Assembly (NCBI RefSeq): GCF_000143535.2 | Contig: NC_037310.1 | Location: 1,612,001-1,676,000, forward strand | DNA from: Botrytis cinerea B05.10 | Lineage: Eukaryota > Ascomycota > Leotiomycetes > Helotiales > Sclerotiniaceae | Direction: 5' to 3' | Length of the DNA: 64,000 nucleotides | Part shown: positions 41,384 to 43,831 of the stretch, piece by piece | Position numbering within the stretch: position 1 is the stretch's first letter | Layout of the letters: the number at the start of each line of letters is the position of its first letter | The notes under the pieces: generated by a model | Told to the model about the DNA's origin: nothing | Database searches by the model: none | The model's input: only the letters and a program-made list of their open reading frames with translations | Program-made: the position numbers and the translations under genes

Positions 41384-42462
41384 TTAAACAACCGACGAAT
41401 TAACAGGAACAGTACCCGTATTATTGTAAGCCGCATCATTAACCGCATGGTTTGAATTAACTGCAGTAGCCGCTGGAGTATTCTGTCCTTCACGATAACC
41501 ATTGTTCGTAACCGGAACATGTGCACCATCATGATGGGCACCATTATGATGGCCAACATCCTTGTCATTGAATGTCCTTGGCTGTTCATTGTAATCCCTA
41601 ATATGCAGACCCAGATGCGCAGGATCGATATTACGATGACCAAACAATAAGAGAGAACCAAAGCCAATCTTGGCAAGGACATCGAGAACGCCGTAGAAGA
41701 CTGCTTCTGAATCGGGTGCAATGACATTTCCACCTTCTGAAAGACCCCAGGCGATAGGGTAGAGAAACCAGAGGAACATGGTAACGCCTCCACAAGTCCA
41801 GTATACTTTATTCACTTCACTGCCCAAAGCTTTGGCATGTTGAGCTCCGACGAAGAGAATGTTCCAAGCAATACCAAAGAGGGCAGCCATTGCGAAGACG
41901 AAATATCCCCACTTATAAGAAGATGCAACGAGAGCACCAACGAGACCGGTGATAATCATAATCTCGTCCAAGAAGATTGTGAACAATATCGTTGGCCATG
42001 GAAGACCTGCAGTTAACAGGATGTCCAAAAGTAAAAGCTAAAAAAAAGTAGGAGTATTAGCACTTGACCACACAAGAAGGTAACAGCAGGAAAGCTTACA
42101 GGAGTTGTGACAACCCAATCGATATATCTCACGTAGAAAATTTCTCGATATACACCACTGACTTTAGGATCGCTTCGTTGGAATTCCTGAATGATAGAAG
42201 CATAGCCCAAATTTGACGCCATGGTAAAGTACGCGATCGAGGCCGTCATAGTAATGGCCGCAGTGATGTAATGGAAGACACGCTTGCTTCGTGGAACTCG
42301 GAAGCTCAAAGCCAGGAAAACTATAGTTGCAAAGGCCATTGCAGCAGTAATGGCCCAATACACATCACTTCCATGGGTTGTGATGCTGATATCGGAGCTC
42401 GCTGGGTAGTGAAAAACATCTGGATTTGCGTGCAATGCATCGTTGGCTCGTTTTTCAATCAT
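41384..42462 (-). CDS. Microbial-type rhodopsin (opsin), proton-pump class, CarO-like
   Basis: Exons 42462-42100 and 42037-41384 give 338 residues with seven membrane spans. Helix C spans the splice junction and reads RYIDWVVTTP|LLLLDI. Asp115 and Asp126 match bacteriorhodopsin Asp85 (proton acceptor) and Asp96 (donor), and Arg112 matches Arg82. The retinal lysine is Lys244 in DVLAKIGFG. This is the residue set of proton-pumping fungal opsins (Fusarium CarO, Leptosphaeria LR) rather than the non-pumping NOP-1 type. The C-terminal tail is His/Asn-rich (HHNGAHHDGAH). It lies beside carotenoid genes that make its retinal chromophore. Expression is probably light-induced, as in related clusters; a GATCGA box lies upstream at 42648-42653 on the coding strand. 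Confidence 0.93.
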
Positions 42463-43321
42463 ATTGATGAATGTTTGGATATCAATAGTTAATTATTTCA
42501 ACAACAAGCAATATGAAGAGGGGTGGGTATATATGAGAATTAAGCAGAAATCTTGGTATAATCTAGAAATAGAAGAATATACACACAATTTCCAAACTGG
42601 ATGAAGCGGCTTATAAAGACTTCAAAATTCAGCTAACTGTTCAATCTTCGATCATACTACAATCAGCGACATCGACATCATCAAATTGCCGATACTGCCA
42701 TCGATGTTACATCGGGACTTGAAGATCTAGATGACAAACGCGGGCAACAAACAAGGATCGCCACATAAAAGCTTGATTTGTATATATAAAACTTTCCATA
42801 TACCGTAGATCTGCTTGATATTATCCACACGAAAACGAGGGGGGACAGAGAATTTGTTGCCAACTATGCGTACTTAAATGTACCTATTTCGGCTAGAGAA
42901 TTTTCTAGTCGCTAAAACTACAGCCTTTTGAGGAAATGATAGCAGCGAACATGTCATATATTAATTAATTCCCAATTGATTCGACGATTTAAAAATGTAA
43001 CAATGATGACAAGATGAGGGGAACTTTCCTAGGGGCCCGAGTGACATTCAAATGCGTATATAGCGAATGATTGATATTCTCGGTTGACAGTCGGGATTGG
43101 ATTAGGATAGAGGTGTCATAGACTTTGACGTAACAAGGGCACAGACTTCGATACTCAGTCCCATTATGGACAAAACCGTAAATCTCAAATTCTCAATGAA
43201 CTTCCATCCCACAAAATCAAATCCACAAAACAAAAAGCTTGTTTTTTTGATTTGTGACTGAGAAGTTCTAGACCTACTTTGTCCTCAACGAGCATGTCGT
43301 TCTACAAATCGCTCAACCTCC
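42463..43321. promoter_or_regulatory. Opsin upstream region with GATCGA box
   Basis: 860 bp upstream of the opsin start codon. TCGATC at 42648-42653 is GATCGA on the coding strand, about 190 bp upstream of the ATG. GATCGA is the core reported for White Collar complex binding in Neurospora. The rest is AT-rich without genes. Confidence 0.4.
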
Positions 43322-43638
43322 TCAAGATCTTAGTGCCCGTCTCTTCCGAGCCTCCGAAAATACAAATTCATTACACCACATGAACGAATCAATCATTTCC
43401 CGAGAGTATTGACGAACATCACCGGATGTGACTCCAACCACCCCATCAACCACTCGATCGACGTCTGGGTATAAACCTTGAAGATAGAGCATTCTGAGAG
43501 CCTTTTGGCAACTGAGGGGTTGAACATCTGATCAAAAAGAAATTGAACGTTAGATATTCACACACTTATTAGACCAATGCTAATCCGGATGGCAGTTGAG
43601 TGGGCTGACTCACATTCGAACTTATGACGAGATGACAT
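43322..43638 (-). CDS. Cryptic two-exon gene for a 76-residue protein inside the carotenoid cluster
   Basis: Exon 1 43638-43614 (25 nt, MSSRHKFE) and exon 2 43527-43322 (206 nt) join in frame to 76 residues and a stop. The intron is well formed: GTGAGT donor, CTAAC branch point, pyrimidine tract TTTCTTTTT, ATCAG acceptor, 86 nt long. An in-frame TAG lies three codons before the ATG, so the start is well defined. Exon 2 is open throughout, with even composition and no repeats. It begins VQPLSCQKALRMLYLQG and ends NEFVFSEARKRRALRS; both ends suggest amphipathic helices and a basic C-terminus. No signal peptide or membrane span is seen. I do not recognise a family. It lies between opsin and carB on the same strand, so co-regulation is possible but unproven. 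Confidence 0.55.
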
Positions 43639-43831
43639 AACGACCTATAGACAAAAGAGGAGACCATTCTAGGTCCGGAAGAGGTCCGCTAGATATCGAC
43701 ACTAGACTTCGCGGTCCGCTAGAAACTACACAGGTAATAACCGTATCTTGACTTAACTTATCAATCAATTTTGATGACCTTGACAATGAATCCGACAACA
43801 AAAAGATGGATATCTAGAATTGTGATGGCAA

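What the first reader, a model, noticed from the sequence alone, without database searches (positions are those of the whole stretch)
43322..43638. Hidden 76-residue spliced gene inside the carotenoid/opsin cluster
The spacer between opsin and carB contains a two-exon ORF that size filters miss. GTGAGT donor, CTAAC branch point, pyrimidine tract and CAG acceptor are all present, the 25-nt and 206-nt exons close in frame, and an in-frame stop just before the ATG fixes the start. The product resembles nothing I know. It could be a small regulator or partner of the carotenoid/retinal pathway, or an unrelated micro-gene.
Basis: partly seen in the sequence, partly recalled or inferred. Interest (0 to 1): 0.75.

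Follow-up and report, generated by a model that had tools for sequence, protein, structure and literature searches.

The report
Unannotated spliced transcript beside fungal opsin
Between the opsin gene and a carotenoid gene of a Botrytis grey-mould fungus lies a small two-exon reading frame that gene annotators seem to have missed; its spliced form turns up in public sequence data, so the RNA is very probably real, but nothing yet shows that the 76-residue protein is made or does anything.

Summary
The anatomy is confirmed. On the minus strand, exon 43638-43614 (25 nt), an 86-nt intron 43613-43528 (GTGAGT, CTAAC, pyrimidines, CAG) and exon 43527-43322 (206 nt) join into a 76-codon ORF with an in-frame TAG starting nine bases before its ATG. 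It lies between the phytoene dehydrogenase and opsin genes, all on one strand. The genome fits Botrytis cinerea. Key new evidence: a public protein collection holds the identical, already spliced 76-residue sequence from four contigs (longest 2994 nt), while another entry, with contigs up to 34,137 nt, has only exon 2 from its internal Met. I infer assembled RNA, so transcript and junction are very probably real. Coding is not shown: composition leans non-coding; random transcripts of such length often carry a 76-codon ORF (82 to 365 of 2000 shuffles); an upstream ATG in better context opens an overlapping 62-codon frame. No relative beyond one near-identical sequence was found, and no significant fold match. 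Best reading: an unannotated, spliced, lineage-restricted intergenic or read-through transcript. A carotenoid/retinal role rests on position alone.

The parts
43614..43638 (-). exon 1 (25 nt): ATG and codons 1-8 plus first base of codon 9
   Evidence: sequence and translation; product identical to the start of P0001
43528..43613 (-). intron (86 nt): GTGAGT donor, CTAAC, T-rich tract, CAG acceptor
   Evidence: its absence from the reading frame of P0001 is the evidence for splicing
43322..43527 (-). exon 2 (206 nt) with TGA stop
   Evidence: single match in the own genome
43393..43667 (-). competing 62-codon ORF in another frame of the same spliced RNA (same intron removed); its ATG at 43667 has A at -3 and G at +4 and lies 29 nt upstream of the 76-codon ATG
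43672..43723 (.). three copies of GGTCCGCTAGA (two exact, one 82%) between the phytoene dehydrogenase stop and the ORF's ATG; possible promoter element, untested
   Evidence: the pair of exact copies occurs once in the own genome
43832..45745 (-). bcphd1 (carB-type phytoene dehydrogenase), upstream neighbour; first exon 45745-45706 read by eye
   Evidence: ORF; Pfam Amino_oxidase 6.4e-22; 5' end sequence printed; gene name from the published cluster
41384..42462 (-). bop2 (opsin), downstream neighbour; one intron placed by eye
   Evidence: Pfam Bac_rhodopsin in both exon pieces; spliced protein 94% identical to a Botrytis aclada protein

Best explanation
It is a real but unannotated spliced transcript lying on the same strand between bcphd1 and bop2 in Botrytis cinerea, carrying a lineage-restricted 76-codon ORF whose translation is unproven. 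Most likely it is made as a 3' read-through of bcphd1 or as a tandem upstream transcript running toward bop2, is processed like an mRNA, and if it does anything acts in cis, through transcription across the bop2 upstream region, rather than through a conserved protein. Shown: the splice anatomy in the DNA. Inferred with good support: transcription and splicing. Inferred weakly: overlap with a neighbour's transcript. Not shown: light control, any effect on bop2, translation.
For: P0001 is identical over all 76 residues, junction included, in 4 contigs of source 'lgn', the longest 2994 nt. The collection also holds unspliced readings: P0002 (exon 2 only, from M21, contigs up to 34,137 nt) and P0080 (opsin read only from a Met inside exon 2, source lgn, 22,248-nt contig). 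Spliced mRNAs seem to be in the same source: P0009, a full-length 336-residue opsin running across the bop2 intron position, 3 contigs of at most 1522 nt. The spacer is 1369 nt (1283 spliced), so a colinear 2994-nt contig must run at least about 1.7 kb into a neighbour. Composition leans non-coding: 6 of 239 coding pieces score as low, 79 of 390 non-coding pieces as high or higher.
Against: The contigs behind P0001 cannot be read here, so that they are RNA is inferred, not seen; the controls are one protein each. The two recorded exon-2 differences (R71G, L74V) keep the frame open. Short real proteins often have weak signal, and the codon-choice part of the score, taken alone, does not discriminate (56 of 239 coding pieces as low, 94 of 390 non-coding as high). 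The 2994-nt contig could be a misjoin.
Confidence: 0.58

Rival explanations
1. A genuine stand-alone micro-gene: its own promoter in the 193 nt after bcphd1, a short mRNA, and a translated basic, mostly helical 76-residue orphan protein of Botrytis.
For: Exact spliced product in 4 contigs; in-frame stop just upstream; frame kept open in a variant with 2 changes in 56 residues; exon 2 scores better in this frame than in the other two sense frames; single-sequence AlphaFold model with three helices; computed pI 9.1; GGTCCGCTAGA repeats just upstream.
Against: Composition scores below 233 of 239 coding pieces; two antisense frames of exon 2 score about as well or better; ORF length is unremarkable once the splice is given; upstream ATG in better context in another frame; no further relatives; model confidence only 64.
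Confidence: 0.33
2. A regulator or partner of the carotenoid/retinal pathway encoded as a small protein next to opsin, as Brz is next to bacterio-opsin in Halobacterium.
For: Position and orientation only: it lies upstream of bop2, same strand, inside a light-induced cluster (PMC3886904 passages). Precedent in PMC2253796 (abstract).
Against: No CxxC-type motif (Cys only at 15 and 60), no match to any Pfam or NCBIfam family, no expression data for it; the cluster is reported in all Helotiales families (PMC6941272 passage) while this ORF was found only in near-identical copies.
Confidence: 0.05
3. Nothing is there: a chance two-exon ORF that is never transcribed.
For: Loose models arise in 26 of 1000 shuffles.
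Against: An untranscribed chance ORF should not appear already joined, residue for residue, in 4 outside contigs.
Confidence: 0.04

Closest known systems
carP lncRNA of Fusarium (PMC6971296, abstract read; PMC12566771, passages)
   Same: RNA near a carotenoid-control locus, same strand as and upstream of a neighbouring gene (carS there, bop2 here), no conserved ORF seen.
   Different: Different locus (upstream of carS, not between carB and opsin), about 1 kb, function shown by deletion there; here none is shown, and no sequence comparison was made.
Brz, Halobacterium salinarum (PMC2253796, abstract read)
   Same: Small protein encoded directly upstream of an opsin gene, same orientation.
   Different: Archaeal, zinc finger, function shown; here no such motif, and translation is not shown.
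B. cinerea retinal cluster bccao1-bcphs1-bcphd1-bop2 (PMC3886904, PMC6941272 and PMC9920419 passages)
   Same: This is that cluster; gene families match.
   Different: The passages read describe four genes; the unit between bcphd1 and bop2 is not among them.

Membership tests
protein-coding gene | spliced ORF present in RNA | tested here: inconclusive
   identical spliced 76-residue product in 4 contigs of at most 2994 nt; that these are RNA is inferred, strongly, from the controls P0002, P0080 and P0009, not seen
protein-coding gene | codon and amino-acid make-up like known genes of the genome | tested here: not met
   6 of 239 coding pieces as low; 79 of 390 non-coding pieces as high; a weak test for 76 codons, and the coding pieces are the training set itself
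protein-coding gene | conserved frame with purifying selection in relatives | tested here: inconclusive
   only P0002 with 2 changes in 56 residues, species unknown; no relatives' DNA available
protein-coding gene | translation (footprints or peptides) | not testable with these tools
   no such data here
Brz-like small zinc-finger regulator | CPxCG-related zinc-finger motif | tested here: not met
   Cys only at 15 and 60; no Pfam or NCBIfam match; motif name from a section heading of PMC2253796
long non-coding RNA (carP-like) | transcript without conserved ORF, acting on a neighbour | tested here: inconclusive
   transcript inferred; no effect on a neighbour testable; no Rfam match in the spacer

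The most novel reading that the evidence does not exclude
A recently born Botrytis micro-protein, encoded directly upstream of an opsin gene and co-transcribed with the retinal cluster, that tunes opsin or retinal supply: a fungal positional counterpart of archaeal Brz.
Probability: 0.05. Interest if true: 0.75.

Novelty: new member of a known kind. Interest (0 to 1): 0.33.

Why it matters
If the transcript is confirmed it adds an unannotated unit to a well-studied light-regulated cluster and must be kept in mind when bop2 or bcphd1 are deleted or their promoters cut out, because such deletions may remove it too. If translated, it would be an orphan micro-protein whose origin within Botrytis could be dated. 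As it stands it is a missed small transcript of a common sort.

Tried and rejected
Homology: the own-genome protein search gave only the locus itself, and a DNA search with the spacer gave only itself (that search skips very common words), so there is no sign of a transposon piece. Pfam, NCBIfam and PDB sequence searches gave nothing up to E = 10. A search with X padding, to admit longer proteins (about 153-486 residues), had 19 candidates and none at E up to 10, so I found no sign that the ORF is a piece of a longer gene; lengths from about 134 to 152 were covered by neither search. Genome contigs: 531 stretches matched a pattern, none a relative. Junction DNA in viral contigs: 0. Rfam on the spacer: 0 up to E = 1. 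Fold: 23 Foldseek matches up to E = 10, none at or below 0.001; model confidence 64, so no fold is claimed. I wondered by eye about a helix-turn-helix; no family or fold search supported it, and I made no dedicated test. Light-element motifs (recalled, WCC type): GATCGA or its complement at 42648, 43454 and 43456, the last two overlapping inside exon 2; GATC four times between 42650 and 42811, nearer bop2. I draw nothing from it.

Coding score: the first run had 1 of 14 training rows in the wrong frame (5 stops); the second dropped 1 of 14 rows for a frame fault; one search used 14 of 14 in frame and is the one quoted. In all three the ORF lies between the coding and non-coding means. The non-coding stretches were chosen by me from the ORF list and may hold unrecognised exons; the coding pieces are cut from the training genes; pieces overlap. 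In one search, against a simulated null, exon 2 was reached by 7.7% of non-coding draws and lay above only 2.8% of coding draws.

Papers: PMC6638203 (gapless genome) and PMC11702200 (B. cinerea lncRNAs) are not held, so I could not check whether either lists this transcript. PMC10218500 has none of the six terms asked for. The PMC11409189 passage names Bcin01g04580 only. Searches bearing on whether it is in print; supplementary files could not be read.

Full report
WHAT IS THERE. The window lies in a 42.63-Mb, 18-contig genome (contig 1, 1612001-1676000). Size and contig number fit B. cinerea B05.10 (recalled), and the spliced opsin is 94% identical to a Botrytis aclada protein and 79% to the Monilinia laxa one, the same 79% that PMC7827745 (table passage) gives for M. 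laxa OPS2 against Bcin01g04540. The cluster is opsin (minus), phytoene dehydrogenase (minus), phytoene synthase (minus) and carotenoid oxygenase (plus); Pfam finds the expected families in all four. The spacer between opsin and dehydrogenase is 42463-43831, 1369 nt.

THE OBSERVATION. The product is MSSRHKFEYVQPLSCQKALRMLYLQGLYPDVDRVVDGVVGVTSGDVRQYSREMIDSFMWCNEFVFSEARKRRALRS. A comparable model arises in 3 (strict) or 26 (loose) of 1000 shuffles of the spacer and in none of 13,110 bp of other probably non-coding sample from the window.

SPLICED PRODUCT IN PUBLIC DATA. A search of a collection of 5.8 billion proteins had 2 candidates, and both matched. P0001 equals the 76 residues throughout, from 4 contigs of source 'lgn' (which I take to be the Logan assemblies of public reads; recalled), longest 2994 nt. 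P0002 (sources lgn and ena, 7 contigs, longest 34,137 nt) begins at the internal Met 21 and has only exon 2, with two changes. The simplest reading is that P0002 was called on genomic DNA and P0001 on intron-free, that is RNA-derived, contigs. Two controls from the opsin search agree: P0080, 'lgn', longest contig 22,248 nt, reads only from a Met inside the second exon; P0009, 'lgn', contigs of at most 1522 nt, reads the full spliced protein across the intron position. I could not open the contigs, so this remains an inference, though a strong one.

STAND-ALONE OR NOT. The spliced spacer is 1283 nt. If the 2994-nt contig is colinear with the genome it must extend about 1.7 kb into bcphd1 or bop2 or both. 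That favours read-through, a long leader, or overlapping UTRs joined in assembly, and does not tell which.

CODING OR NOT. Against: the ORF's per-codon score (-0.036) is as low as 6 of 239 coding pieces and is reached by 79 of 390 non-coding ones; the amino-acid part drives this (11 of 239 and 118 of 390), while the codon-choice part alone is undecided (56 of 239 and 94 of 390). Of 2000 shuffled transcripts each of 415, 725 and 1283 nt, 82, 197 and 365 have a sense ORF of 76 codons or more. An ATG at 43667, with A at -3 and G at +4, opens an overlapping 62-codon frame (to 43393) in the same spliced RNA 29 nt upstream, whereas the 76-codon ATG has G at -3 and T at +4. For: the frame stays open with two substitutions in P0002; exon 2 scores better in this frame than in the other two sense frames, though two antisense frames score about as well or better; the single-sequence model has three helices (mean pLDDT 64.2), without any significant fold match. 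I put coding at about 0.38 in all (the first two rivals together).

CONSERVATION. No relative besides P0001 and P0002 was found, no family, no PDB chain. The collection does hold annotated Botrytis, Sclerotinia and Monilinia proteins, so no annotated protein close to it seems to exist, within the limits of exact 5-residue words and the length ranges searched. Published locus tags run Bcin01g04540 (bop2), 04560 (bcphs1), 04570 (bccao1); if 04550 is bcphd1, as I infer (no paper found gives that tag), no round-number tag is left between bop2 and bcphd1. The four-gene cluster is said to occur in all Helotiales families (PMC6941272 passage), which makes a Botrytis-only ORF an unlikely core partner; but distant relatives would be missed here.

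MECHANISM. I commit to a spliced, lineage-restricted transcript that, if functional, acts in cis on its downstream neighbour, by analogy with carP upstream of carS (PMC6971296 abstract; PMC12566771 passages). The analogy is of arrangement only. The cluster is light-induced (PMC3886904 passages); whether this transcript is, is unknown.

VERDICT. The functional reading is unsupported. Moderate-to-low interest.

Noticed in passing
43672-43723: Three copies of GGTCCGCTAGA (two exact, one 82%) in the 193 nt between the dehydrogenase stop and the ORF; the exact pair at that kind of spacing occurs once in the own genome, but two matches with up to one mismatch in the window are reached in 10 of 100 shuffles.
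   Followed up: partly
43393-43667 (minus, spliced): An overlapping 62-codon frame in the same spliced RNA, with a better start context than the 76-codon ORF.
   Followed up: partly
43185-43295 (minus): A 36-codon ORF follows the 76-codon one in the spliced transcript.
   Followed up: no
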